From a bacterium (GTDB taxonomy: Bacteria > 4484-113 > JALSIF01), in NCBI GenBank assembly GCA_026981635.1, contig JALSIF010000261.1:1-11735 (forward strand): DNA of 11,735 nucleotides, given 5' to 3'. A model generated the notes under the pieces. The model did no database searches. It saw only the letters and a list, made by a program, of their open reading frames with translations, and had not been told where the DNA came from. Made by a program: the position numbers and the translations under genes. This document shows, one piece after another, positions 868-11,735 of the stretch. The first letter of the stretch is position 1. Every line of letters begins with the position of its first letter.

Positions 868-915
868 CCCCCACCGCGGATCGGAGGAGTGAGGAAACCA
901 TCAGGGAGGGGAAAT

Positions 916-1509
916 ATGCGGAACCGATGGGTGGTCTTCGGCGCGATCCTTGTTGTACTGCTCACCTCTTCCTGTCCACGCCAGGCGGACAAGGAAACGG
1001 GAGGGCCATCCCCTGCCGCTGAGACGGGCGGGCTGGCGGCGGTAGTGACGGAGGGTAAGTGCCCCGTCTGCGGCATGCCCTACGCTACCGCTTCCACCGA
1101 GGTCCATGCTGGCGGGCGCAAATTTGACAGCTTCCCCTGCTGGGTGGAGTACGCCGACAAGAACGGCCTAGATCCAGCCAAGGGAGAGATCCTTGATTTT
1201 CCCACCCGGGGAGGGGAGCGGAGCTTCGTTCCCCTCATCCAGGCCTTCTATGTGGAGGCGGAGTTTCTGGAAAGCTCCATGCCCCCCTTCCTGGCCGCTT
1301 TCAAGGACCCCACCGAGGCGGAGCGGTTTGCCGCCGAGCAGCAGAGCCAGGTGATCACCTTTGACCAGGCCCTGAAGATCTCCCGCAACTGGTTCAAGAA
1401 ACACGGCTACCGGGGCCACCAGGGCAAGCCGATGGATATGGGTGATATGGAAGGCAAACCCATGAACCACCAAGACGCCGACCAGCAGGGACGAAGCGGA
1501 GACGGATAG
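916..1509 (+). CDS. nosL: NosL, copper-binding accessory lipoprotein for N2O reductase
   Basis: NosL is an exported copper-binding protein that helps supply Cu(I) for assembly of the NosZ CuZ site. The family signature CPVCGM is at residues 49-54, followed by a second conserved-looking Cys (75, FPCWVEY). The N-terminus has a short basic start, a hydrophobic stretch (5-17) and TSSC at 17-20; Cys20 is a plausible lipidation site although position -3 is Thr rather than Leu. The last 35 residues carry His163, His168, Met173, 175, 178 and 183 and His185, including two GKPM repeats, and look like an extra metal-binding tail. ATG 916 was chosen because GGGAGGGG (904-911) precedes it and the signal sequence then starts properly. 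GTG 889 has its GGAGG only 1 nt away. The gene is convergent with nosY instead of following it. Confidence 0.9.
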   Translation: MRNRWVVFGAILVVLLTSSCPRQADKETGGPSPAAETGGLAAVVTEGKCPVCGMPYATASTEVHAGGRKFDSFPCWVEYADKNGLDPAKGEILDFPTRGGERSFVPLIQAFYVEAEFLESSMPPFLAAFKDPTEAERFAAEQQSQVITFDQALKISRNWFKKHGYRGHQGKPMDMGDMEGKPMNHQDADQQGRSGDG

Positions 1510-1526
1510 CTCTACCGGAATCCGTC
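1501..1526. terminator. Small inverted repeat spanning both convergent stop codons (weak terminator candidate)
   Basis: GACGGAT (1501-1507) is matched exactly by ATCCGTC (1520-1526), leaving a 12-nt loop. It covers the last codons and stops of nosL and nosY, whose coding regions end 15 bp apart. A shared bidirectional transcription end would be expected here. The stem is only 7 bp and there is no T-run on either side, so a classical intrinsic terminator is not shown; it may be chance. Confidence 0.25.
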
Positions 1527-2364
1527 AGATCAGGTCGCGCCGGCAAAGCAGGAGGGAACTTGACCCACCGGGCACCAGCGCCCAGAGGACCAGTGCTCCG
1601 GTTAGGGTAGCGATGGCGGTGGAGTAGCCGCCCAGCGCCTCAGCAAGCTTTGCTCCCGCCACCCCGAAGATCTCCTCCCCGCCCAGGGCCATCAGGCTTG
1701 CCACCCTGACCAGGTCAATGGGGTTTAGGAAGATGGAGTACATGAAGAGCTGGTTGGCCTCGCGCTCACTGAGCACCGAACCAAAGCCCAGCACAGCGAG
1801 GTCGTAGAGGGCGACCAGGAAGAACCAGACCAAAACCCCCAGGGCATAGCCCGCCATGGAGCGTCGAGTGACCACCGCGCAGACCATCCCCAGGCCCACG
1901 CTGGCCGCCGCCATGAGCAGGGAAAGGAAGGCAAACAGGATGTAGCCCCCCGCATCGGCTCCCCCCTGGCGCATGGCGATAACCGCCCCGGTGAGGGAGA
2001 AGGCAAACACCATCCCCAGCGCCATGGCCAGACACTGGCCGATGAACTTGGCAAAGATGAGCCGCGGTCGGGAGAGGGGCTGGGAGAAGATGAGCTCCCC
2101 CGCCCGGTCGCGCTGGGTGAGGGAGTGGACCCCGGAGAGCATCCCCATCAGGGGAACCAGGTAGATGACCAGGTTGAGCAGGCTAACCGTGGTGCGGCTA
2201 AACCCCATAAGGCCGGTGCGCTGGCTAACCGAAATGCCGAACCAGGCCACCCCAATGAGCAGGGCGGCAAAGACCAGGGCAAAGCCCATCACCCACTGGT
2301 CGCGAACCATGAGGGTTAGCTCAAACCAGACGATGTCCCTGGTGCGGAGCCGGGGAGACGCCAT
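1525..2364 (-). CDS. nosY: NosY, membrane permease subunit of the NosDFY copper-site maturation system
   Basis: A 279-residue integral membrane protein of the ABC-2 permease type, which partners the ATPase NosF and the periplasmic NosD in maturing the NosZ copper centre. Hydrophobic segments are seen near the N-terminus (VMGFALVFAALLIGVAWFGI), then LLNLVIYLVPLMGMLSG, the FIGQCLAMALGMVFAFSLTG region, ILFAFLSLLMAAASVGLGMV, GYALGVLVWFFLVALYDLAV and a final TLTGALVLWALVP, giving about six membrane spans. The loop LTQRDRAGELIFSQPLSR is typical of NosY/ABC-2 permeases (the region contacting the ATPase). I chose ATG 2364, 4 nt after the nosF stop with GGAG just upstream. A frame extended to 2406 would run back into nosF. 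It is the last gene of the nosZ-B-D-F-Y run. Confidence 0.93.
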   Translation of the reverse strand: MASPRLRTRDIVWFELTLMVRDQWVMGFALVFAALLIGVAWFGISVSQRTGLMGFSRTTVSLLNLVIYLVPLMGMLSGVHSLTQRDRAGELIFSQPLSRPRLIFAKFIGQCLAMALGMVFAFSLTGAVIAMRQGGADAGGYILFAFLSLLMAAASVGLGMVCAVVTRRSMAGYALGVLVWFFLVALYDLAVLGFGSVLSEREANQLFMYSIFLNPIDLVRVASLMALGGEEIFGVAGAKLAEALGGYSTAIATLTGALVLWALVPGGSSSLLLCRRDLI

Positions 2365-2368
2365 CGCC

Positions 2369-3307
2369 TTACTCTCCACTTTGGGCCTCCTCCACCACCT
2401 GGTCAATCAGCTTGAGGTAAAGCTTTTCCAGCCTGCCCGGGATCACCTCCAGGGACCTCACCCGAAGCCCTCGCCGCTCAAGCTCGCTCACCACCCGGGC
2501 GCGGCTCTCCGGGTCGGCCACCACCAGGTAGCCCTTGGCGTTGGGTGAGACTTTGCGTGCCCCCGCCTCACGGGCCACCCGCACCACCTCATCGCCATCC
2601 CCCTCCACCTCAATGCGCAGTTGCTCCATTTCTTCCACCTGCCGGTCAAGCTCCTGCCGGTCAAGATCACCCACCACCTTCCCCCCACAGAGGAAGATGA
2701 TCCGGTCGGTAAAGCCCACCAGCTCATCCAGCAGGTGGGTGGCGATGATGATCCCATGGCGGCCACCGCTTCTGGCGTGGGTCTCCTTGAGGAAGTCAAA
2801 GAAGTCCTTGGCCGAGCGGGGATCAAGCTGGGCGGTAGGCTCATCCAGCAGCAGAAAGTCTGCCTCGGCAAGCAGCGCTATGGCCAGGGTGGTGCGCTGG
2901 GCTAGGCCGCCAGACAGCTCCCGGCAGAGCTTGTCGGCCTGCTCCAGCTCGTATAGCCCCACCGTGCGCAGCACCTCCTCGGTGCGCTCCGGGGGAAGCC
3001 CCCGCAGGCGGCGGTAGAAGTCCACCACCTCCCAGACGCTGAGCTCGGCGGGAAGCTCTGGCCTTTGGGGCAGGTAGCTTATGTGGCGCAGGGCCAGGGA
3101 GGGCCGTTGAAAGGGGTCGTGACCGAATACCCTCACCCTCCCCCGGGTGGGCCGGATCAGGCCGGCACAGAGCTTAAGCAGGGTGGACTTGCCACTTCCG
3201 TTGGGTCCCACCAGGGCCACCACCCGGCCCGGCTCAAGGGAAAGGGTGATCCCCTCCACCGCCACTACCTGCCGGTAGCGCTTGGTGAGCCCCTCAAGCA
3301 CAATCAT
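2369..3307 (-). CDS. nosF: NosF, ABC-type ATPase of the NosDFY complex
   Basis: A 312-residue cytoplasmic ATPase that drives the NosDFY complex needed for CuZ assembly on NosZ. All nucleotide-binding motifs are intact: Walker A GPNGSGKST (34-42), Q-loop Gln81 in YLPQRP, signature LSGGL (131-135), Walker B FLLLDEP (151-157), D-loop around QLDP (160-163) and switch His191 in ATH. After about residue 225 a C-terminal regulatory-type domain of roughly 85 residues follows, as is usual in the NosF/CcmA-like group, so the length is normal. ATG 3307 overlaps the nosD stop as ATGA, and GGAGGAG (3314-3320) provides a ribosome site, so nosD and nosF are translationally coupled. The nosY start follows 4 nt after its stop. 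Confidence 0.95.
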   Translation of the reverse strand: MIVLEGLTKRYRQVVAVEGITLSLEPGRVVALVGPNGSGKSTLLKLCAGLIRPTRGRVRVFGHDPFQRPSLALRHISYLPQRPELPAELSVWEVVDFYRRLRGLPPERTEEVLRTVGLYELEQADKLCRELSGGLAQRTTLAIALLAEADFLLLDEPTAQLDPRSAKDFFDFLKETHARSGGRHGIIIATHLLDELVGFTDRIIFLCGGKVVGDLDRQELDRQVEEMEQLRIEVEGDGDEVVRVAREAGARKVSPNAKGYLVVADPESRARVVSELERRGLRVRSLEVIPGRLEKLYLKLIDQVVEEAQSGE

Positions 3308-4719
3308 CGCTTTCTCCTCCTAAACCGGCCGCCTATTCCCCGCGGCCTGGCCTGCCGTCCCACCAGCAAGGCTAGCAGAATCCCCAGCCCGAGCATCAAC
3401 ACCCCCGCCGCCGGACTGGGTTTGGTCGCCTTGCGCTGGGTCTCCAGCGCTACCCGGGCTACGGAGGTAGGCCGCATGAGGGGGGCAGGGTCCACGGTGG
3501 GCTGGGAAAAGATGATGGGAAAGACCTTCTCCGCACTGGCCAGCGCCTTGGCTCCCAGGCTGAAGAGGTACAGCCGGGCCAGGGGCCTCAGGCGCTGGAG
3601 CTCCTCAAAGGCGCCGCTCAGGTGGTGGGGCACATCTCCCACCCCGTCAAGGTCCAGGTCGTAGCCCAAGTAGTCACTCCAGTAGTTACCCCGTCCTTCC
3701 TTGGCCCAGATCACCCCGTCAATGGGTCCGTCCACCGGCTGGACCGAGGTGTAGTTGCCGATGAAGTCGTTCTCGGTGAAGTAGACCTCACCACCACCGG
3801 TGAAGGCCAGCACTCCGACATCATTTTCAGCAAAGAGGTTCTTTATAAATTCTGAGTCATATACTAGATCAAGCTGTATCCCAATATAGTTTCCGACTAC
3901 AACATTCTTAGATGCCTCAATATTCTTTGTTTTAAGAAGCACTAGTCCACTGGATAGGTACGTATCCCGGTTAAAAAGGATTTGATTCTGATTGAGTTCA
4001 ATATAATCTGAGTACATCATCACTCCACCTACTGTTGATCTATAGATTAGATTTCCCTCAAACTTGTTGTAGTCTGAGTACATGTAGTGGAGTCCATAGC
4101 GCAGGTCGTGAATACGGTTATTAATTGTGGTGATTCTATTGGCATGATCAAAGTATATCCCGTCTCTAACTAGACTAATGTCGTTTCCATGTATCGTCAC
4201 TTCCTCAGTATTCCAGAGGTAGATTCCATTTCCCTTCTCATCATCGGGAAGGCCCTTCTTCCCAACAATTACGTTGCCTAATATCTGATGCCCCTTTCCC
4301 CCCTCCACAAAAATACCGAAGCGGGCCTCAAGCAGGCGGTTGTCTCTGATGGTGATGCGGTCCCCCTTGATATGCACGCAGGAGGCGTTGTGCATGAGGT
4401 CATCTCCCGTACCCACCACGGTAAAGCCGGAAAGTTCAACCCCGTTGGCTAATAGCTCCACCGTGTGGGTAGAGCCACTGTTCTCAATCACTGGCCCGCC
4501 TCGCCCAACCAGCCTGAGGCCGGGGACCTTAACCACCACATGTTCCCGGTAGCGCCCCCCATCCACCACCACCACATCGCCCGGACCGGCCGCCTCCACC
4601 GCCGCCTGAATAGAGGAAAACTCCCCACCCTGCGGGGAAACGAAGATGGTCCTGGCCTGAAGTTGAGCAGGAAAAAGGATTAGGCACAGTGTAGCGGTTC
4701 CAATAACCAATCTTCCCAC
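3304..4719 (-). CDS. nosD: NosD, periplasmic right-handed beta-helix copper-maturation protein
   Basis: A 471-residue exported protein of the carbohydrate-binding/sugar-hydrolase (CASH) beta-helix fold, which works with NosF and NosY on NosZ copper-site assembly. A Sec signal (hydrophobic residues about 4-16, cleavage likely near QLQA/RT) is followed by many short strand repeats of the GNxI, NxI and SDY kind from about residue 90 to 325. The NosD hallmark GNYWSDYLGYDLDLDGVGD lies at about 344-362. Near the C-terminus a hydrophobic segment (AAGVLMLGLGILLALLVG, 437-454) and an Arg/Lys-rich tail suggest a membrane anchor. I prefer GTG 4719, because GGGGAGG (4725-4731) is 5 nt upstream; GTG 4746 would add nine residues but its GGAGGA is about 13 nt away. 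Bases about 3830-4270 are strikingly AT-rich. The stop overlaps the nosF start (ATGA). Confidence 0.93.
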   Translation of the reverse strand: MGRLVIGTATLCLILFPAQLQARTIFVSPQGGEFSSIQAAVEAAGPGDVVVVDGGRYREHVVVKVPGLRLVGRGGPVIENSGSTHTVELLANGVELSGFTVVGTGDDLMHNASCVHIKGDRITIRDNRLLEARFGIFVEGGKGHQILGNVIVGKKGLPDDEKGNGIYLWNTEEVTIHGNDISLVRDGIYFDHANRITTINNRIHDLRYGLHYMYSDYNKFEGNLIYRSTVGGVMMYSDYIELNQNQILFNRDTYLSSGLVLLKTKNIEASKNVVVGNYIGIQLDLVYDSEFIKNLFAENDVGVLAFTGGGEVYFTENDFIGNYTSVQPVDGPIDGVIWAKEGRGNYWSDYLGYDLDLDGVGDVPHHLSGAFEELQRLRPLARLYLFSLGAKALASAEKVFPIIFSQPTVDPAPLMRPTSVARVALETQRKATKPSPAAGVLMLGLGILLALLVGRQARPRGIGGRFRRRKR

Positions 4720-4724
4720 CCTGA

Positions 4725-4731
4725 CCTCCCC
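4725..4731 (-). promoter_or_regulatory. Ribosome binding site deciding the nosD start
   Basis: GGGGAGG on the minus strand, 5 nt before GTG 4719. It favours this start over the in-frame GTG at 4746 and places the short basic n-region directly before the hydrophobic core of the signal peptide. Confidence 0.55.
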
Positions 4732-4775
4732 TCTCCGACTTGGCACCCGTTGCCTGGATTCCTCCTAACTCCTTC

Positions 4776-5450
4776 TCAATTAGGCGGTGCAGCTTGGGTC
4801 TGGGCTGCTCCCTGACGTTGGCGCTTCAGGTAGGCTATGCTCTCGTAGAGGAAGGCGATAAGGATCAGTCCACCAGCAATAAAGAGCATCCAGCTGCCAT
4901 GCCCGGGTACGCTGGTAACGGTGAAGTTGGCGATCTTCTTGGTGCCAAATATGGGTGGCATAAATGGGTCAACTTTGATCGGGGCATCTGGAGCCAGATT
5001 GTGCCCGTAATACCAAAGCTTGTGATAAAAGTCATAAAAGGAGAAGCCTCCGAAGTAGAGCATGATCACCAGCGCATCAATCATGGTCTTAAACTCGCCC
5101 AACACGGCCGCCCTGAGTAGCAGGATGACGATAATGCCAAATCCCAAAGGAAGCCAAAGAAACTCCTTAAAGTCCTCTGCCACGATGGGGTCCATCCCAA
5201 TGTAGTGATTGAGGGCGTTGATCTCACGGATGTCGTCACGGTTGGGGACATCTCCTCCCTCCAGTCGGTTGGCGTAAATGTAGAGCCTAAGCGGAGGATC
5301 CTTGTACATCTGGGCCTCAAACTCCATGAACCAGAGGGGCTTGTTAAAGGCCCCATAGGCGATGAGCACCGCCGCGATTATCAACAGAAGCCTTCCGACC
5401 AGGCCAAAGCTTGAGTGGAGGTATTGGTTGATCCTCTCAAAGAAGCCCAT
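4776..5450 (-). CDS. nosB: NosB-like membrane protein of clade II nos clusters
   Basis: A 224-residue membrane protein of unknown biochemical role. Four membrane spans are visible at about 17-34, 98-116, 122-138 and 186-207. A hydrophilic, probably extracytoplasmic loop (about 38-95) contains the motif LNHYIGMDPI (80-89). The third span is followed by an aromatic- and His-rich stretch (FYDFYHKLWYYGHN, 138-151) and a loop with PGHGSW (182-187). Its place between nosZ and nosD is the known place of nosB in clade II (for example Wolinella-type) clusters, and this is the basis for the symbol; I cannot align it here. The His, Met and Tyr residues outside the membrane could bind metal, which is speculation. 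ATG 5450 has GGGGAG about 9 nt upstream. Its stop precedes the nosD start by 56 bp. Confidence 0.7.
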   Translation of the reverse strand: MGFFERINQYLHSSFGLVGRLLLIIAAVLIAYGAFNKPLWFMEFEAQMYKDPPLRLYIYANRLEGGDVPNRDDIREINALNHYIGMDPIVAEDFKEFLWLPLGFGIIVILLLRAAVLGEFKTMIDALVIMLYFGGFSFYDFYHKLWYYGHNLAPDAPIKVDPFMPPIFGTKKIANFTVTSVPGHGSWMLFIAGGLILIAFLYESIAYLKRQRQGAAQTQAAPPN

Positions 5451-5545: not shown

Positions 5546-7468
5546 CTAGCGCTTCGGCTTCACCACCAGATAGCCCTGCATCTCCTGGTGAAGTGCAGAG
5601 CAGAAGTTGGTGCAGTAGTAGGGGTACACTCCCGGCTTATCAGCCTTGATCGTTACATGCTTGGTTTCACCGGGGTCAACAACCACATTGACGTTGTAAC
5701 CGACGATCCCAAAGCCGTGAAGCTCATCGGTGGTTTGCTCTATGTTGGTCAGGTGGAAGATAACAGTATCCCCCTCATTCACCTCAACCTCTGTCGGGTA
5801 GATGGTTGACCTGACCAGGGCAACCCATACCTCTACTGTGTTCGGCCCAGTGCGCTCAATCCGGGCTTGCTCAATGGATGTGATCTTGTTGGGATCCTTG
5901 TTGTCCTTCTCCAGGTCGTAGACCTCAATGACCTTTGGCTCCAGCTCCGATGCTTTGATGGAGATGGCATAGTGTGGCTCAGGCTCAGTAAAGGCATCAT
6001 AGAGCAGGCGCATCTTCTCACCCGAAATATCAATGAGTTGGCTGGACTCGGGCTGGCTGGGTCCTACCGACAGATGACGCCCGTGGGAGAGCTTGTTTAG
6101 AGCGATTACATACTCCCCGTAGGGCTCCACCGTATCCCCACCGGGAACCAGCAGGTGGCCAATGTTGTAGCTCACCTTGATGGTGTCCACCACCTTCCAC
6201 TCCTCAAGCTTCCACTTGGCGATGGCACTATCAATGAACAGCGAGGTGTAGGCGTAGCCCTTGTTGTCAAATTGGGTGTGGAGCGGGCCCAGCCCAACGT
6301 TTACCTCAGCCTCCTTGACCGAGTCGTAGTTGAGCACCGGGATGTCAAACACGGTGTCGGTGAAGTCCTGGTTCTCAATCGCCTTGAGGATCTTCTCAAA
6401 GTTGAACACGGTGACGATGGAGGCAAGCTTTCCGCTGGCCACAATCCACTTCCCGTTGGGTGCCACATCTACCCCGTGGGGGCTCTTGGCAGTAGGGATA
6501 AAAAAGATGGCCCCCTTTATGTCTTTAGGCTCAAGCACCCTGACACCGTTCAGCACCCGGCCCAGGTTGGGGTTGTTTTCCAGGATCTCATCTACCTTCT
6601 TCCAGTTGACTAGCAGCGTATAGTCGCGCTCGTTCTGGGAGGCGGTCACCTCCAGTTTACCGGTGGCCATCTCCGAGTTGTAGGAGGTCCAGAAGCCCCA
6701 GCCATGGGAAATCCCATGACCCGTCGCCCCCAGATCCCAGTCAAAGGGTGGAGTGACGATCTGCCAGGGGGTAGACATCTTTCCCGTCTCTGGATCTATC
6801 CGCACAGCACCCACTACGCCCTTGTACTTTTCTTTGTAGTCCGAGACAGGGGCGTAGGTGCCAATGGGGAAGGGGATGGAGAAACGGGTTCCATAGAGTA
6901 TGTACTCACTGTTGTCGGTGATGAAAGCTGAGCAGTGGGCTCCTGCCACGTTGGGGAGGTCAATTATCTCCTTGGTCTTGAAGTCCCTCAGGTCAATTCT
7001 CGCTATCCGATTGTTTGCGTTGTCGTTTACAAAGAGCCATCTGCCATCGTACTTCCCGTTGGTCTTGGACAGGTTCGGGTGGTGAACATCGCCCCAGGTG
7101 AAGCCACCCAGCATCTTTTTGGTCTCGTCGTCAAAGCCGTAGCCGGTTGACGGATAGGGAGTGAAGACCGGGATGGTGGCGATGTGGCGCATGGAGGGGA
7201 TGCCAGCGACAAAGACGTTGCCCGAGTGGCCTCCGGAATAGAATAGGTAGTAATCGTCTTTTTCTCCCGGTGGAACGTAGGTAGCTTCAGCCGCCGAGAC
7301 CATTCCTCCACCCCCCGTTGACGGCCGGGTTGCGGTAGGAGCTTTCCCCCGCTCTACCTTCTCCGCCCGCTGACAACTTGCCGCATAGGCGGCTATGAGC
7401 ACCGCCAGCGCGAACAGCCCCAGGATCAGGCCCATCCTGACCCACGCTCTCTGGTTCCTGTTGCCCAT
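5546..7468 (-). CDS. nosZ: NosZ, nitrous oxide reductase (clade II type)
   Basis: NosZ reduces N2O to N2 outside the cytoplasmic membrane, using the tetranuclear CuZ site and the dinuclear CuA site. The 640-residue protein has an N-terminal seven-bladed beta-propeller and a C-terminal cupredoxin domain (from about 545). All seven expected CuZ histidines can be placed: His129 and 130 (DVHHP), 178 (GAHCS), 331 (SPHGVD), 397 (PLHTQFD), 438 (NIGHLL) and 499 (EPHY). CuA ligands are His584, Cys619, Cys623, His627 and Met630 (CTNFCSALHQEM). The leader has a hydrophobic core (about 13-29) with no Tat twin-arginine motif and ends AASC (Cys32), so export by Sec, possibly as a lipoprotein, is likely. 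These traits and the neighbouring nosB-like gene mark clade II. GGAGG lies 8 nt before ATG 7468. It probably has its own FNR/CRP-type promoter. Confidence 0.98.
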   Translation of the reverse strand: MGNRNQRAWVRMGLILGLFALAVLIAAYAASCQRAEKVERGKAPTATRPSTGGGGMVSAAEATYVPPGEKDDYYLFYSGGHSGNVFVAGIPSMRHIATIPVFTPYPSTGYGFDDETKKMLGGFTWGDVHHPNLSKTNGKYDGRWLFVNDNANNRIARIDLRDFKTKEIIDLPNVAGAHCSAFITDNSEYILYGTRFSIPFPIGTYAPVSDYKEKYKGVVGAVRIDPETGKMSTPWQIVTPPFDWDLGATGHGISHGWGFWTSYNSEMATGKLEVTASQNERDYTLLVNWKKVDEILENNPNLGRVLNGVRVLEPKDIKGAIFFIPTAKSPHGVDVAPNGKWIVASGKLASIVTVFNFEKILKAIENQDFTDTVFDIPVLNYDSVKEAEVNVGLGPLHTQFDNKGYAYTSLFIDSAIAKWKLEEWKVVDTIKVSYNIGHLLVPGGDTVEPYGEYVIALNKLSHGRHLSVGPSQPESSQLIDISGEKMRLLYDAFTEPEPHYAISIKASELEPKVIEVYDLEKDNKDPNKITSIEQARIERTGPNTVEVWVALVRSTIYPTEVEVNEGDTVIFHLTNIEQTTDELHGFGIVGYNVNVVVDPGETKHVTIKADKPGVYPYYCTNFCSALHQEMQGYLVVKPKR

Positions 7469-7524
7469 TTCCCTTACCTCCTACTTCGGCATGGGGGTTT
7501 GCCCCAGCCGGTTTCTTTCTTGAA

Positions 7525-7538
7525 GCTAAAGAAATAGT
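7525..7538 (-). promoter_or_regulatory. Putative -10 element and start region of the nosZ promoter
   Basis: On the minus strand ACTATTTC (7538-7531) contains plausible -10 hexamers, and transcription would start near 7524-7527. The operator centre (7568.5) is then about 41.5-44 bp upstream, the usual distance for activation by an FNR/CRP-family protein that replaces a -35 box. The hexamer itself is a weak match to TATAAT, so this rests on the geometry. Confidence 0.35.
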
Positions 7539-7561
7539 CCCAGGCAGACGCAGACTAGTAA

Positions 7562-7575
7562 GTGACCTAGGTCAC
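7562..7575 (-). promoter_or_regulatory. FNR/CRP-family operator palindrome upstream of nosZ
   Basis: GTGACCTAGGTCAC is a perfect 14-bp palindrome. Read as GTGA-N6-TCAC, with an A on each side, it has the layout of CRP-family sites; read as GTGAC-N4-GTCAC it fits the TTGAT-N4-ATCAA layout of FNR, DNR and NnrR. It is the only strong palindrome in the gap, 94 bp before the nosZ start codon and downstream of the terminator of the preceding operon. Regulation of nosZ by low oxygen or nitric oxide through such a protein is common in denitrifiers. Which regulator binds here is unknown. Confidence 0.6.
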
Positions 7576-7631
7576 AAGCTCTACAAGTCCCCAACCTGCC
7601 ACTTCTTTGCATAGTCATCCGGTTCAAAGGT

Positions 7632-7662
7632 GAAGAAAAAGAGACTCCCTCCAACCAGGGAG
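7632..7662 (-). terminator. Intrinsic terminator of the cytochrome operon
   Basis: On the minus strand CTCCCT-GGTTGG-AGGGAG (7662-7645) forms a 6-bp stem with a 6-nt loop and is followed directly by the T-rich TCTCTTTTTCTTC. It begins about 40 bp after the stop of the pentahaem cytochrome gene. It would end the Rieske/cytochrome b transcript and separate it from nosZ. The stem is short, so some readthrough into nosZ is possible. Confidence 0.65.
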
Positions 7663-7702
7663 AGAGAGGAGCAAGAGCAGTCCTGGGTGACCGAAGCCGC
7701 TC

Positions 7703-8914
7703 CTACTCGGGAAGCTTTTTGCCCTGTTGGTGGAGATCGTAAGCACGTTTGAGAAGCTCCACTGCAAGCTTTCGTTCATCCTCGGATAGCCGAATTCTTG
7801 TCTCAAGCACCATCCTCATGGTTCCGATGGGATTCATGAGAAACTCCTCAAGATCCATTCCAAATCTCTTCCGCACATCCTCAACAGCCAGAGACAGGTC
7901 AGGTCCGATGTCCGCAGGGCTGTCAATTCCAAAGCTGGAGATGTCGTGGCAAGCATTACAACCCTTTGCTACGAACCATTGCCCCGGATCCTTCTCAAGG
8001 TCAATACTTAACGCGCCCGCTTCCTTCTGCTTGATCTCAGCCCCCGGTCTAGCCTTGTTAAAGCCTGCAGTAACCGGTATATATTTGGGAGGAATTCCCC
8101 ACTCTCGCCAGCTCATAACGAGCATGGCCAGGGCCATAGCCTCTCGGTCGGTGAGGTTGAAATTAGGCATTTCCGTTCCCGGGCTGACCCGCTTGGGGTC
8201 TTTGAGGTGCTCAAACTGCCAGTTCAGCATGGAGCGGATACCTTGGACAAAGGTGTAGTCAAAGGCTTCGGGGGATTTGTCCCCCTCATAGGTCAGGTCT
8301 GGTCCTATGGTCCCACCAATTCCGTCAACCGCATGGCACTGGAGACACCCTTTCTTCACAAACAGCTCTTTGGCAAGGTTGATGTAGTTCATTCCCTCCA
8401 CCTCCTTCTCAAAGAGGTGGCAGGAGTTACACCTTATCTCCAGCAAGGCCCTGGAGTCATCCAGCGGATAGCTCTGAACTAACTCCGGCAGGTCAAGAAC
8501 CGGCTCCAGCCAGAACTTAACCAGCCCGTGGGCCTCTTCTTTCTCCAGTGCCCATCCCTGACCGCCATGACAGGTGGTGCACCCATAGACCTCAATAGGG
8601 TGCTTCTCAAGGATCCCCTTGGGATGGGAACGGTAGGGCTGGGGTGCATCCTCCAACCCCTCCCAGGTAACTCCAGCATGACAGGTCATGCATCTGTCCA
8701 CCACACCCAGCTCCGGATTCCAGATCTGCTGAATCCCAAACTCAATCTTCTCCGCCACCTCCGGACCCCGGGTCTCATAGATGTACTGATAGAACCCCTG
8801 TTGGTAGCGCTGCCACTCCGAGTACTGCTCCTTGTAGGTAAGCCACACGCTAAGCAACACTACGGCAAGACCGGCAACCATCAGCCACACGACGTCCATC
8901 CGGTAGTTCTTCAT
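7703..8914 (-). CDS. Membrane-anchored pentahaem cytochrome c of a bc-like complex
   Basis: A 403-residue c-type cytochrome that probably takes the place of cytochrome c1/f, accepting electrons from the Rieske protein and passing them to periplasmic acceptors such as NosZ (inferred). One N-terminal membrane helix (about 8-26, VVWLMVAGLAVVLLSVWL) anchors it with the haem domains outside. Five CxxCH sites are visible: CMTCH (75-79), CTTCH (112-116), CNSCH (162-166), CLQCH (190-194) and CNACH (319-323). The segments after the last two (GTIGPDL with a later TEMPNF; DIGPDL) resemble class I cytochrome c domains with a Met ligand. ATG 8914 was chosen: a purine-rich AGGGAGAGG precedes it and the anchor then starts the protein. 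A frame to 9010 would overlap the cytochrome b gene. The gap from the cytochrome b stop is 13 bp. I know no fixed gene symbol. Confidence 0.88.
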   Translation of the reverse strand: MKNYRMDVVWLMVAGLAVVLLSVWLTYKEQYSEWQRYQQGFYQYIYETRGPEVAEKIEFGIQQIWNPELGVVDRCMTCHAGVTWEGLEDAPQPYRSHPKGILEKHPIEVYGCTTCHGGQGWALEKEEAHGLVKFWLEPVLDLPELVQSYPLDDSRALLEIRCNSCHLFEKEVEGMNYINLAKELFVKKGCLQCHAVDGIGGTIGPDLTYEGDKSPEAFDYTFVQGIRSMLNWQFEHLKDPKRVSPGTEMPNFNLTDREAMALAMLVMSWREWGIPPKYIPVTAGFNKARPGAEIKQKEAGALSIDLEKDPGQWFVAKGCNACHDISSFGIDSPADIGPDLSLAVEDVRKRFGMDLEEFLMNPIGTMRMVLETRIRLSEDERKLAVELLKRAYDLHQQGKKLPE

Positions 8915-8927
8915 GGCTATCCTCTCC

Positions 8928-10283
8928 CTAGTACTTGACGGGCGGAGCCTCCCAGGTTTGCCAAGGCCAGTACCACTCCCAGAATGGCCCCCTGAGATAG
9001 GAAGCGACAAGGATCAGAACCATGATCAGAAGCGAGATGATGATGAAGGTCAGGTTCTGCCACCTGCGTGAGCGATGAAACCAGACCCCCACCGCTTCCA
9101 CCGGGGAGCGGTCTAGCCAGGGCCAAACCGCCGCCCAGAGAAGAAGCAAACCGGGGATCAGGATCCCTCCTACTAGGCCACCGCTGATGGCAAAACCTGT
9201 GCCGAACTTGATGGTAGTGATGGTGACCAGCTCCTGCAGCCAGAGGAAATACCAGGGAGCCTTGGCCGGGTTGGGAGTGACCGAGGGGTTGGCCGGGTCC
9301 TCCAGCGGGGCAGGAATGAGTTGGGTGAGCACCATGGCCACTGCCAGGGTTGCCAGCCCCACCAGCAGCACCCTACGCACCAAGATAGGAACCGCATGAA
9401 CCGTCTGCTCCTCGGTGTCCACCATCACCTGCTTGACCATGGGGGTCTCACCCTTCACCAGTCCCATGATCATGTAGTTCTTGCGCTTGGCAGGCTTAAC
9501 CTCCTTCTTCCTCTCCTCCAGCGCCAGGTGGTCCTCGCAGGCCAGCCCCCCGTCCTTTCTAATCCGCCACATGTGCCAGGAGAAGAGCAAAAGAACCAGG
9601 GCGGGAAGGAAGAAGACATGCAGGGTGTAGAAGCGGATCAGGGTGTTTTGGGAAATCTCGTTTCCTCCGAGCAGGATGAAGCGGATCTGCTCTCCCACCA
9701 GTGGAGCGTTGCGGGCAATCTCGGTGCCAACCGTTATCGCCCAGAAGGCCAGCTGGTCCCAGGGCAACAGGTAGCCAGTAAAGGAAAGGAGCAAGGTAAG
9801 AAGTAGCAGTGCTATACCAATCAGCCAGTTCAGGGGCCGGTTCTGGCGGGCAAACACCCCGTTTCTGTAGGCGGCGGTGAGAAAGACCCGCATCATGTGA
9901 AGGAAAACCACCCCCACCATGAGGTGAGCGCTGATCCGATGGAGGTTTCTTAGGTAGCTGCCGTAGGGGATTACATACTCCAGATCCTTGATTGATGCGT
10001 AGGCCCGCTCGGTGGAGGGAACGTAGAAGAACATGAGGATGACCCCGGTCACCGTAAGGATGAGAAAGAGGATGGCCGAGATGGTGCCCAGCCAGAGGGA
10101 GTAGGACCAGGAGAGGGAGCGGTGGCTAACCCGGTTGGGAAACCAGTGGAGCAGGAAGTTGACCACAATGGCATCCCCCTGCTCCTTTTTGCTGCGCGGC
10201 CACCACGACCAGACCACCGATCTCCAGTCAATCTTTAGCAGACCAGCCAACTCTCTTAGGACTCTTGTGCCGGCTCTCGCCAT
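8928..10283 (-). CDS. Cytochrome b (b6 plus subunit IV fused) of a Rieske/cytochrome b complex
   Basis: The membrane core of a quinol-oxidising complex, carrying two b haems and the quinone sites. The 451 residues combine an N-terminal b6-type half (about 1-245) and a C-terminal subunit IV-like half, with about eight membrane helices. Likely haem ligands are His115, His129, His222 and His237; the 14 and 15 spacings are as in cytochrome b6 rather than mitochondrial b. The Qo-site PEWY is replaced by APWY (342-345, in KAPWYFLWLQE). There is no Cys in the first 60 residues that could bind an extra haem ci. A charged cytoplasmic linker (about 241-285) joins the halves. The N-terminus is extended by about 50 polar or aromatic residues. 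GGAGG lies 4 nt before ATG 10283. The Rieske gene lies 33 bp upstream and the pentahaem cytochrome 13 bp downstream, so this is one operon. Confidence 0.95.
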   Translation of the reverse strand: MARAGTRVLRELAGLLKIDWRSVVWSWWPRSKKEQGDAIVVNFLLHWFPNRVSHRSLSWSYSLWLGTISAILFLILTVTGVILMFFYVPSTERAYASIKDLEYVIPYGSYLRNLHRISAHLMVGVVFLHMMRVFLTAAYRNGVFARQNRPLNWLIGIALLLLTLLLSFTGYLLPWDQLAFWAITVGTEIARNAPLVGEQIRFILLGGNEISQNTLIRFYTLHVFFLPALVLLLFSWHMWRIRKDGGLACEDHLALEERKKEVKPAKRKNYMIMGLVKGETPMVKQVMVDTEEQTVHAVPILVRRVLLVGLATLAVAMVLTQLIPAPLEDPANPSVTPNPAKAPWYFLWLQELVTITTIKFGTGFAISGGLVGGILIPGLLLLWAAVWPWLDRSPVEAVGVWFHRSRRWQNLTFIIISLLIMVLILVASYLRGPFWEWYWPWQTWEAPPVKY

Positions 10284-10316
10284 TTAGCCTCCTTCCTCCA
10301 GTCGTAGGATTGGCTT

Positions 10317-10955
10317 CTAGGTGAAAAACCTCCAGCCGATCTCCACCTTCCTCCGCTTGTCAACGGTTAACGAGCCATCATCCGGGGAAATGAAGACCTC
10401 GTACCAATCAAGCGGCCTAGGAGCAGGTCCAGCGTAATTGGTGCCATCCCCATAAAACTTTGAGCCATGGCATGGGCAGTGAAACTCCCAGTGTTCCTCT
10501 ATCATCTCCCGGCCTCCCCGCCCCCTGACCATCTTGGGCTTCTCTAGGGGGACATACTTCACCGTGCAGCCCAGGTGGGTACAGATGGCAGATATGCAGT
10601 AGAAACGGGTTTGCTTAGTGGCCTTATCTACTTCTTTGAACACGAAAGCCCGCTGCTCCGGAATGAAGTTGACCCCCTCGGCCACCTCCTCCGGCTTTCC
10701 CACCTTGAAGCGCTTGTTGGGCTCATAGAGCACCCGGGGAACGAAGGAGAGCAGGGACAGCCACCCCTGCCAAACCACCCCCAGGAAGACCGACAGGCCG
10801 GTGGCCATCCCCAGCCAGCGTCGGCGGGTAAAGAGGGGGCGGTCAATCTGCTCAAAGTCGGGCGCTACCTCACTTGCCACCTTCTTCGGCAGACTCACCT
10901 GCCCAGCGCCCCGCTCCTGCCCACTTTCCTCAGGCGGGGACTTCAACCTCTTCAT
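10317..10955 (-). CDS. Rieske [2Fe-2S] protein of the cytochrome b complex
   Basis: The high-potential iron-sulfur subunit, which carries an electron from quinol to the cytochrome c subunit. Box 1 CTHLGC is at 125-130 and box 2 CPCHGSKF at 160-167; the cluster ligands are Cys125, His127, Cys160 and His163, with a Cys130-Cys162 disulfide expected. A polar N-terminal stretch of 43 residues precedes TRRRWLGM (43-50), a Tat-like twin-arginine motif, and the single membrane anchor (about 52-72), so Tat insertion is likely. The spacing between the boxes (29 residues, with an Arg/Lys-rich part near 139-150) is longer than in typical Rieske proteins, where it is nearer 15-20. ATG 10955 has the strong site GGAGGTGAT upstream, and the gene overlaps the end of the FAD oxidoreductase gene by 26 bp, which suggests coupled translation. 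Confidence 0.95.
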   Translation of the reverse strand: MKRLKSPPEESGQERGAGQVSLPKKVASEVAPDFEQIDRPLFTRRRWLGMATGLSVFLGVVWQGWLSLLSFVPRVLYEPNKRFKVGKPEEVAEGVNFIPEQRAFVFKEVDKATKQTRFYCISAICTHLGCTVKYVPLEKPKMVRGRGGREMIEEHWEFHCPCHGSKFYGDGTNYAGPAPRPLDWYEVFISPDDGSLTVDKRRKVEIGWRFFT

Positions 10956-11735
10956 ACCACATCACCTCCATCGTCATGGCCTCAGTGGGGCAGCGGATGG
11001 CACAAAGCCCACAGCGGATGCAGAGCTCATCATCCTTGAGCATCACCGAGACGGGCCCGCCATCCGATGCCCCCGCCTCTTCCACCAACCTCCTCACCGT
11101 CTCATCGTCGCAGAGGATCTCAAGCTCCATCAGATCCACCAGCTTTAGGCAGTCGGTGGGGCAGACATCCACGCACCGGTTACACATCACACACAGGTCC
11201 GGGTTGTAGACCGTCTGGATATGGCAGGAGAGACACCGCTCCGCCTGGCGCCTGGCCTCCTCCGGCGAGTAGGTCTCTTCCACCTCGGAGATGCCAGTGC
11301 GTCGCTCAAAGTCCACCGTGGGGGGCGCCTTGCGCGGGTAGTTCTCATAGCCCTCCGGCTGCTGGTAGCGGTTGATGGGGAGCTTCTCAAAGATGAAGTG
11401 GACCTCGTGGCGCACCTCCCGCTTGCGCAGGTAGGAGTCGATGGAGAGGGCGGCCCGCTTCCCGTCGGCCACCGCATCAATGATGTTCCTGGGGCCGAAG
11501 GCCACATCACCGCCCGCAAAGACCCACTCGGCGGTGGTCCTCAGGGAGTCGGGATCAACCTTGATGGTCTTTCGCGGGGTGATCTCCACCCCATCCTCCG
11601 GCTTTAGGAAGGAGAGGTCGGCGGTCTGGCCGATGGCCAGAATTGCGGTGTCGGCCTCAAACTCCTCTACGATCTCCTCGTCATACTCCGGGTTGAAGCG
11701 GCCCTCCTCGTCAAACACCCGCTTCACCCTAACCA
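10930..11735 (-). CDS. FAD-dependent oxidoreductase with two [4Fe-4S] motifs (GltD-like), N-terminus outside window
   Basis: The C-terminal 268 residues of a cytoplasmic flavoprotein are visible; the frame stays open to the window edge, so the GTG at 11727 is probably internal. Numbering from that GTG, AILAIGQTADLSFL (28-41) and WVFAGGDVAFGPRNIIDAVADG (68-89) are the nucleotide/FAD-binding hallmarks of the GltD-like (glutamate synthase small subunit) pyridine nucleotide:disulfide oxidoreductases. A Cys pair RCLSC (164-168) follows, then two ferredoxin motifs, CVMCNRCVDVCP (179-190) and CIRCGLCAIRCP (236-247), separated by an insert of about 45 residues. A role in passing electrons between NAD(P)H, or another cytosolic donor, and the adjacent cytochrome b complex is suggested only by the 26-bp overlap with the Rieske gene. 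It could also be an unrelated GltD-type enzyme subunit. Confidence 0.85.
   Translation of the reverse strand, partial: VRVKRVFDEEGRFNPEYDEEIVEEFEADTAILAIGQTADLSFLKPEDGVEITPRKTIKVDPDSLRTTAEWVFAGGDVAFGPRNIIDAVADGKRAALSIDSYLRKREVRHEVHFIFEKLPINRYQQPEGYENYPRKAPPTVDFERRTGISEVEETYSPEEARRQAERCLSCHIQTVYNPDLCVMCNRCVDVCPTDCLKLVDLMELEILCDDETVRRLVEEAGASDGGPVSVMLKDDELCIRCGLCAIRCPTEAMTMEVMWYEEVEVPA
10961..10969 (-). promoter_or_regulatory. Strong ribosome binding site of the Rieske gene inside the upstream gene
   Basis: On the minus strand GGAGGTGAT matches the 16S anti-Shine-Dalgarno end over nine bases. GGAGG is 9 nt before ATG 10955. The site lies within the last codons of the FAD oxidoreductase gene and decides the Rieske start, showing that the 26-bp overlap is genuine. 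Confidence 0.7.

What the first reader, a model, noticed from the sequence alone, without database searches (positions are those of the whole stretch)
5546..11735. Clade II N2O reductase paired with a Rieske/cytochrome b/pentahaem cytochrome c module
Seen: a tightly packed set of FAD/Fe-S protein, Rieske, fused cytochrome b and pentahaem cytochrome c directly upstream of nosZ on the same strand. No nosR is visible. Known: NosR carries quinol electrons toward NosZ in typical systems; many clade II clusters lack it, and some carry Rieske or cytochrome b genes. Inference: this module is the dedicated, energy-conserving quinol-to-NosZ route, with the pentahaem protein replacing cytochrome c1 and the soluble carrier.
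Basis: partly seen in the sequence, partly recalled or inferred. Interest (0 to 1): 0.75.

Follow-up and report, generated by a model that had tools for sequence, protein, structure and literature searches.

The report
Quinol-oxidising complex dedicated to N2O reductase
Next to the gene for the enzyme that destroys the greenhouse gas N2O lies a conserved set of genes that most likely passes electrons from the cell membrane straight to that enzyme, with an extra subunit of a kind that could use the N2O reaction to make NADH; the same set occurs in a named Anaeromyxobacter strain, so the idea can be tested.

Summary
Upstream of a clade II nosZ lie, on one strand, an FAD/Fe-S protein (cut by the contig end), a Rieske protein, a fused b6/subunit-IV cytochrome b and a five-haem cytochrome c. 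The module's cytochrome b belongs to a strongly supported clade in which 14 of 15 readable loci have nosZ next (Acidobacteriota, Myxococcota, Bacteroidota, Chlorobiota, KSB1, the window's class). In 396 Acidobacteriota, 25 of 25 readable five-haem genes abut nosZ. No nosR-type domain was found in this genome. New here: the fifth haem domain is specific to nosZ-linked copies and occurs elsewhere as a stand-alone cytochrome beside nosZ, which marks it as the likely exit to NosZ. The Rieske profile is nearest, among solved structures, to anammox Rieske/b proteins whose complexes carry an NAD(P) oxidoreductase; here the FAD/Fe-S protein is always present and co-varies with NosZ. The same genome has a sister module tied to a cbb3-type oxidase. 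Rieske/cytochrome b genes beside clade II nosZ are already published. The NAD-linked reading, possibly N2O-driven NAD+ reduction by quinol bifurcation, was not found in the papers searched and is unproven.

The parts
10930..11733 (-). C-terminal part of a GltD/NfnL-type FAD/Fe-S oxidoreductase (last FAD-binding stretch and two [4Fe-4S] motifs); N-terminus lost at the contig end; full length 633-640 aa in relatives
10317..10955 (-). Rieske [2Fe-2S] protein with CTHLGC and CPCHGS motifs, N-terminal TRRRW Tat-like anchor, Phe in place of the redox-tuning Tyr
8928..10283 (-). cytochrome b: b6 half (haem ligands H115, H129, H222, H237; second pair spaced 15) fused to a subunit-IV half; APWY in place of PEWY; H46 on the N-side; no N-terminal Cys for haem cN
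7703..8914 (-). pentahaem cytochrome c: one N-terminal membrane anchor, three-haem domain, class I haem 4, C-terminal haem 5 domain (proposed NosZ-facing exit)
5546..7468 (-). clade II (Sec-type) nitrous-oxide reductase NosZ, with CuZ histidines and CuA ligands aligned to solved NosZ
4776..5450 (-). three-helix membrane protein in the NosB position, mostly 39-51% identical to the gene after nosZ in module-bearing relatives
3304..4746 (-). NosD, copper-site maturation protein
   Evidence: TIGR04247 340 bits, cut-off 300
2369..3307 (-). NosF, ABC transporter ATPase
   Evidence: position in relatives
1525..2406 (-). NosY, ABC-2 type membrane protein
889..1509 (+). NosL-like copper chaperone, convergent with nosY (weak Pfam match just over the cut-off)
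7561..7576 (-). CRP-type palindrome TGTGACCTAGGTCACT about 100 bp before nosZ (0.02 expected by chance in the window)
7645..7668 (-). terminator-like hairpin with T tail between the cytochrome c gene and nosZ (not clearly above chance in the scan)

Best explanation
The four genes upstream of nosZ encode one membrane complex, a b6f-like Rieske/cytochrome b complex, dedicated to NosZ. Inferred route: menaquinol is oxidised at the P-side site between cytochrome b and Rieske. One electron goes to the Rieske cluster, then the three-haem domain of the pentahaem protein, haem 4, haem 5, CuA of NosZ and CuZ, where N2O becomes N2. The other goes through the two b haems to the N side, where the FAD/Fe-S subunit exchanges electrons with NAD(H). 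The P-side route to NosZ is the main claim, and the confidence below is for it. For the N-side branch the reading I favour, but only at about 0.4, is that electrons leave the b haems through the Fe-S clusters to reduce NAD+, pulled by the very exergonic N2O branch, as proposed for anammox Rieske/b complexes. Shown: gene content, motifs, conserved synteny, single clade, co-variation, domain-specific haem 5. Inferred: complex formation, electron flow, direction at the NAD site.
For: (1) Joint occurrence: in the cytochrome b tree the 18-row clade (SH-aLRT 100, stem 0.7) holds 14 nosZ-linked loci, two loci whose contig ends first (L052, L057), one (L084) whose contig breaks inside the cytochrome c gene with nosZ on another contig that begins in that gene, and one exception. 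In 396 Acidobacteriota the five-haem gene occurs in 26 genomes, all among the 41 with clade II nosZ above cut-off (P = 1.7e-30, relatedness not corrected); 25 abut nosZ and the 26th lies at a contig end. (2) No NosR-type domain in 12 of 16 genomes searched, including this MAG and Anaeromyxobacter PSR-1; no NosH-type domain in this MAG, G001, G007, G008. (3) The haem 5 domain scores 140-167 bits in nosZ-linked proteins, 65 in the exception G039 (which has no NosZ), at most about 50 elsewhere; it is homologous (E 1e-39) to a stand-alone monohaem cytochrome directly upstream of a close NosZ in G119/G385. (4) FAD/Fe-S, Rieske, b, c5 and NosZ distances correlate at 0.78-0.93, FAD/Fe-S with NosZ 0.92. 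(5) The Rieske family profile's best solved matches are 9rk4 and 9rk3, the Rieske proteins of the anammox NAD(P)-oxidoreductase-bearing complexes (PMC12954380). (6) FAD/Fe-S relatives match NfnABC and NfnL, with an intact GGGxVAxDAAR site and an acidic residue that suggests NAD. (7) A sister module tied to a cbb3-type oxidase lies in the same genome.
Against: No biochemistry; a MAG only. The window's own FAD/Fe-S gene is truncated, so its NAD site is unseen. The N-side histidine (H46) expected from the anammox models is conserved also where no FAD/Fe-S gene is adjacent, so it does not discriminate. Haem cN and the five-helix subunit IV of the anammox models are absent here. In this genome, unlike most relatives, a gap with a terminator-like hairpin and a CRP-type site separates the module from nosZ, so they may be transcribed apart. 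Three other bc-type cytochrome b genes exist in the genome and could also feed NosZ. Relatedness inflates the distance correlations and the P value.
Confidence: 0.75

Rival explanations
1. Same complex, ordinary Q-cycle: the b haems reduce quinone at an N-side site and pump protons; the FAD/Fe-S protein is a loosely associated or unrelated redox enzyme. This is closest to the first reader's reading.
For: Four b-haem ligands and the P-side architecture are intact; a Rieske/cytochrome bc complex is needed for clade II N2O respiration in Wolinella (Hein 2017, known by its title as cited in PMC10653820); relatives without an adjacent FAD/Fe-S gene exist in Chloroflexota and others.
Against: The FAD/Fe-S gene is present in every nosZ-linked locus with enough upstream sequence, often overlaps Rieske, and co-varies with NosZ at 0.92; the Rieske protein is nearest to the anammox type that has this subunit.
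Confidence: 0.3
2. The FAD/Fe-S subunit is an input: NADH is oxidised on the N side and its electrons enter the b haems or the quinone pool, making an NADH:N2O oxidoreductase.
For: NAD-type site in the subunit; an electron path would work in either direction.
Against: The genome has complex I, which does NADH:quinone transfer with energy conservation; the same argument was made for anammox (PMC12954380).
Confidence: 0.2
3. The module reduces periplasmic c-type carriers in general; its place next to nosZ reflects shared regulation or co-transfer, and NosZ is fed by other cytochromes.
For: Other bc-type genes in the genome; G039 carries a close module without nosZ.
Against: Near-exclusive pairing with nosZ and a haem 5 domain found only in nosZ-linked copies; the oxidase-linked sister clade has its own distinct cytochrome.
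Confidence: 0.12

Closest known systems
Anammox Rieske/cytochrome b complexes Kuste4569-4574 and Kustd1480-1485 (Kuenenia stuttgartiensis; PMC12954380)
   Same: Rieske protein of the same kind (9rk4, 9rk3 are the best solved matches), b6/subunit-IV type cytochrome b, multihaem cytochrome c in place of cytochrome f, FAD/Fe-S NAD(P) oxidoreductase related to NfnABC, N-side His before the first helix, Ser kept with Phe for Tyr next to the Rieske cluster as in Kustd1480
   Different: b6 and subunit IV fused; three, not five, helices in the subunit-IV half; no cysteine for haem cN; five haems instead of six or eight; terminal acceptor NosZ instead of the proposed nitrite-reducing octahaem protein
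Clade II nos clusters with Rieske (S), cy-b and cy-c genes (Fig. 5 legend of PMC11096178; Hein and Simon reviews, known by citation)
   Same: clade II nosZ, nosB-like, nosD, nosF, nosY, nosL with Rieske, b and c genes nearby
   Different: the published description seen here names the genes but not an NAD-linked FAD/Fe-S subunit as part of the complex, the family relation to anammox complexes, or the haem 5 exit domain
Wolinella NosG-C1-C2-H route plus Rieske/cytochrome bc complex (Hein 2017 by title; summary in PMC11539149)
   Same: quinol electrons reach clade II NosZ without NosR; a Rieske/bc complex is needed
   Different: separate small cytochromes and a NosGH module; here no Fer4_5 protein in the genome and one fused pentahaem protein
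Methylacidiphilum caldifontis IT6 nos cluster inside alternative complex III genes (PMC11102522)
   Same: a quinol-oxidising complex placed together with clade II nos genes
   Different: alternative complex III, not Rieske/cytochrome b
ExtP/ExtQ b-type cytochromes of selenite/tellurite reduction operons (NCBIfam NF040969, NF040970)
   Same: nearest named family for the two halves of the cytochrome b
   Different: both halves fall below the curated cut-offs; here fused and nosZ-linked

Membership tests
Clade II NosZ | score over the Sec-type NosZ model and under the cut-off of the Tat-type model | tested here: met
   TIGR04246 864 bits (cut-off 625); TIGR04244 431 bits (cut-off 625)
Clade II NosZ | no twin-arginine signal; nosB-like gene next to nosZ | tested here: met
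   N-terminus MGNRNQRAWVRMGLILGLFAL without RR motif; three-helix protein at 5450-4776 conserved after nosZ
NosZ catalytic enzyme | seven CuZ histidines and CuA Cys/His/Met ligands | tested here: met
   alignment to 9f8x: the histidine positions and CxxxCxxxHxxM are kept (ligand positions from general knowledge of NosZ)
Anammox-type Rieske/b complex with NAD(P) oxidoreductase | Rieske protein of this type | tested here: met
   best two of 89 solved matches are 9rk4 (8e-34) and 9rk3 (3e-30); next b6f 3e-22
Anammox-type Rieske/b complex with NAD(P) oxidoreductase | FAD/Fe-S NAD(P) oxidoreductase encoded with the complex | tested here: met
   C-terminal part in the window; full length with NAD site in relatives
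Anammox-type Rieske/b complex with NAD(P) oxidoreductase | multihaem c in place of cytochrome f | tested here: met
   five CxxCH, not six or eight
Anammox-type Rieske/b complex with NAD(P) oxidoreductase | haem cN attachment and five-helix subunit IV | tested here: not met
   the only Cys is at residue 249, after helix 4; 4+3 helices. So it is filed as a relative and variant, not as a member
Anammox-type Rieske/b complex with NAD(P) oxidoreductase | N-side His for the predicted interface haem b | tested here: inconclusive
   H46 invariant in A3 but also in loci without an adjacent FAD/Fe-S gene
Canonical bc1 complex | cytochrome c1 and PDWY/PEWY motif | tested here: not met
   pentahaem protein instead; KAPWYFL invariant in A3
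NosR route | FMN_bind plus Fer4_5 polyferredoxin membrane protein | tested here: not met
   no match in G000 (85% complete) nor in G001, G007, G008
Quinol bifurcation to NAD+ | N2O-dependent NAD+ reduction by quinol | not testable with these tools
   needs membranes or purified complex

The most novel reading that the evidence does not exclude
N2O reduction powers quinol bifurcation that makes NADH: the complex splits each menaquinol, sending one electron through Rieske and the pentahaem protein to NosZ and the other through the b haems and Fe-S clusters to NAD+. It would be one case of a wider, modular family (NosZ-linked, cbb3-oxidase-linked and other clades) of NAD-coupled Rieske/b complexes, each with its own terminal reductase.
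Probability: 0.4. Interest if true: 0.87.

Novelty: new variant of a known kind. Interest (0 to 1): 0.63.

Why it matters
How clade II N2O reducers without NosR feed electrons to NosZ, and whether this conserves energy, is to my knowledge still open for most lineages. This work points to one defined gene set, found in at least five phyla and in a named Anaeromyxobacter strain, and to the protein domain likely to hand electrons to NosZ. If the NAD branch is right, N2O would pay directly for reducing power, a reason to keep nosZ without the rest of denitrification. It also ties the unexplained anammox NAD(P)-linked complexes to a wider family that may be easier to study.

Tried and rejected
AlphaFold2 of the pentahaem protein (10-row alignment): mean pLDDT 48, only the membrane anchor reliable, so no fold search was made. 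AlphaFold2 of cytochrome b: mean pLDDT 59.6, enough for the helix count; matches are bc1/b6f cytochrome b as expected. Testing H46 as a marker of the FAD/Fe-S partner: failed to discriminate. Plasmid search with cytochrome b: only partial matches under 40% identity. PMC3839093 and PMC4907195 are not held. The early impression that G196 lacked the FAD/Fe-S gene was an ORF-picking artefact; it is there at 55% identity. G588 first seemed to have nosZ without the module; its contig ends inside the haem 5 domain. The CxxCH in the FAD/Fe-S protein (RCLSCH) is read as an Fe-S cysteine motif and not a haem site: the known part has no membrane helix and the full-length relative is built like cytoplasmic NfnL/GltD enzymes.
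Full report
What is there. The window is a whole 11,735-bp contig of a 1.75-Mb MAG, 85% complete. On the minus strand it carries the C-terminal part of a GltD/NfnL-like FAD/Fe-S protein, a Rieske protein, a cytochrome b that joins a b6-like half and a subunit-IV-like half, a cytochrome c with five CxxCH motifs, clade II nosZ, a three-helix membrane protein in the nosB position, nosD, nosF and nosY. A NosL-like gene faces them on the plus strand.

Is the pairing with nosZ real? In the relatives search, every five-haem protein above 43% identity was followed directly by nosZ: G001, G004, G007 and G008 of the same class, and G015 from elsewhere; the next one, G039 at 42%, was not. A scan of 84,980 species genomes with the cytochrome b alignment returned 80 loci. 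Nine of these carry nosZ directly after the five-haem gene: Acidobacteriota (five), Bacteroidota, Chlorobiota, KSB1 and Anaeromyxobacter sp. PSR-1. In the tree they form, with the window's class, one clade of 18 (SH-aLRT 100, stem 0.7): 14 nosZ-linked, three cut by contig ends, one exception (G039). For one of the three (L084) nosZ was found on a contig of the same genome that begins inside the same cytochrome gene. In 396 Acidobacteriota the five-haem gene is in 26 genomes, and all 26 are among the 41 with clade II nosZ over the cut-off (P = 1.7e-30, not corrected for relatedness). Twenty-five abut nosZ, and the last lies at a contig end. In a domain-wide sample of 385 genomes, 34 have clade II nosZ over the cut-off. 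Among those read, the full module cytochrome is upstream in seven, all with NosZ at least 58% identical to the window's; more distant NosZ proteins use something else. The module is therefore tied to one NosZ lineage and is not general to clade II.

Is there another route to NosZ in these genomes? FMN_bind (NosR) is absent from the MAG and from 11 of the 15 other genomes searched, including PSR-1. Fer4_5 (NosH/NapH/NosR type) is absent from the MAG, G001 (94% complete), G007 and G008. Because the MAG is incomplete this is strong only through its relatives. Three further bc-type cytochrome b genes lie elsewhere in the genome.

How does the pentahaem protein end on NosZ? Profiles of its three parts show that the N-terminal three-haem part and haem 4 are shared across most of the Rieske/b family. 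The C-terminal haem 5 part scores 140-167 bits in nosZ-linked proteins, 65 in G039 and at most about 50 elsewhere. G039, the one exception in the tree, has no NosZ in its genome. In G119 and G385, whose NosZ is 64% identical to the window's, the gene directly upstream of nosZ is a stand-alone monohaem cytochrome homologous to this part alone (E 1e-39); in G119, whose surroundings were read, no Rieske or cytochrome b of this kind is nearby. The simplest inference is that haem 5 is the donor domain for NosZ, used free in some lineages and fused to the quinol complex here. Invariant methionines at residues 249 and 366 of the protein counted from its Met are candidate sixth ligands for haems 4 and 5 (inference).

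What is the FAD/Fe-S protein doing? It is present in all nosZ-linked loci with enough upstream sequence, commonly overlaps or abuts the Rieske gene, and its distances across 14 loci correlate with those of NosZ at 0.92. A full-length relative matches NfnABC, NfnL and GltD structures. Most relatives keep a GGGxVAxDAAR-like nucleotide site followed by an acidic residue (LES) where the NADP-type pattern has YRR, which suggests NAD (a rule of thumb). The Rieske family profile finds, of all solved structures, first 9rk4 and 9rk3. These are Rieske subunits of the Kuenenia complexes that carry a putative NAD(P) oxidoreductase, have potentials of +303 and +335 mV, and are proposed to make NAD(P)H by quinol bifurcation (PMC12954380). 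The window's Rieske shares the Ser/Phe pair of Kustd1480. The cytochrome b has the N-side histidine and an Arg-Lys that resemble those the published models place at a new interface haem. However, these residues are also present in loci without an adjacent FAD/Fe-S gene, so they do not decide. Haem cN and the five-helix subunit IV of the anammox models are missing. I therefore call it a relative and a variant, not a member.

A second case in the same genome. Contig C107 holds a paralogous FAD/Fe-S-Rieske-b-c set followed by cytochromes and a cbb3-type oxidase (CcoN, FixO), the only haem-copper oxidase over the cut-off in the MAG. The same arrangement recurs in Acidobacteriota, Chlamydiota and one Bacillota MAG. 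In the tree the oxidase-linked rows lie apart from the nosZ clade. This suggests a modular family: one NAD-linked Rieske/b core, with different exit domains and terminal reductases.

Mechanism. Most likely: menaquinol oxidation, Rieske, three-haem domain, haem 4, haem 5, CuA, CuZ, N2O. For the low-potential electron there are three options: quinone at an N-side site (ordinary Q-cycle), NAD+ through the Fe-S subunit, or reverse flow from NADH. The organism has complex I, which makes a wasteful NADH entry less likely. I weigh NAD+ reduction at about 0.4, the ordinary Q-cycle at 0.3 and NADH entry at 0.2. Every step of electron flow is inferred; gene content, synteny, clade structure, co-variation and domain specificity are shown. 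That the quinone is menaquinone is assumed, not tested.

What was known. Rieske, cytochrome b and cytochrome c genes beside clade II nosZ are in the literature (Fig. 5 legend of PMC11096178). A Rieske/bc complex is required for N2O respiration in Wolinella (Hein 2017, by title). Two routes to clade II NosZ are summarised in PMC11539149. Alternative complex III genes surround the nos cluster of Methylacidiphilum. No paper found in the open library joins nosZ with quinol bifurcation or an NAD-linked Rieske/b complex; subscription papers were not searchable.

Noticed in passing
G000:C107 (L043:230-9364): Paralogous FAD/Fe-S-Rieske-cytochrome b-tetrahaem c module next to a cbb3-type oxidase (CcoN, FixO), the only haem-copper oxidase over the cut-off in the MAG; same layout in Acidobacteriota, Chlamydiota and one Bacillota MAG.
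   Followed up: partly
L196:4251-4790 (G119) and the same place in G385 (L172): Stand-alone monohaem cytochrome homologous to the haem 5 domain directly upstream of a NosZ 64% identical to the window's, without the Rieske/b module nearby in G119.
   Followed up: partly
window:7561-7668: CRP-type palindrome TGTGACCTAGGTCACT and a terminator-like hairpin in the 234-bp gap between the pentahaem gene and nosZ; relatives often have almost no gap.
   Followed up: partly
L037:16119-16601, L039:5084-5668, L040:12906-13385: Rrf2-family regulator gene directly upstream of the FAD/Fe-S gene in class relatives, a candidate NO- or redox-responsive switch for the nos operon.
   Followed up: partly
L042 and L046 (G039): G039 has two such modules, neither beside nosZ and no NosZ in the genome, both followed by sensor kinase-like genes (read by eye); one has a diverged haem 5 domain.
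   Followed up: partly
L088, L104, L105, L112, L118, L120, L123: Related Rieske/cytochrome b sets with an eight-haem cytochrome and no adjacent FAD/Fe-S gene in Poribacteria, Binatota and Nitrospinota; terminal partner unknown.
   Followed up: no
L076-L121 (many loci): A large clade of FAD/Fe-S-Rieske-b-multihaem c (mostly 5-10 haem) sets in Planctomycetota, Omnitrophota, Acidobacteriota and Myxococcota whose terminal acceptor is not apparent from the neighbours searched for.
   Followed up: no
window:283-867, +: A frame that reads like a HIT-family protein beside the NosL-like gene (recalled from its sequence, not tested).
   Followed up: no
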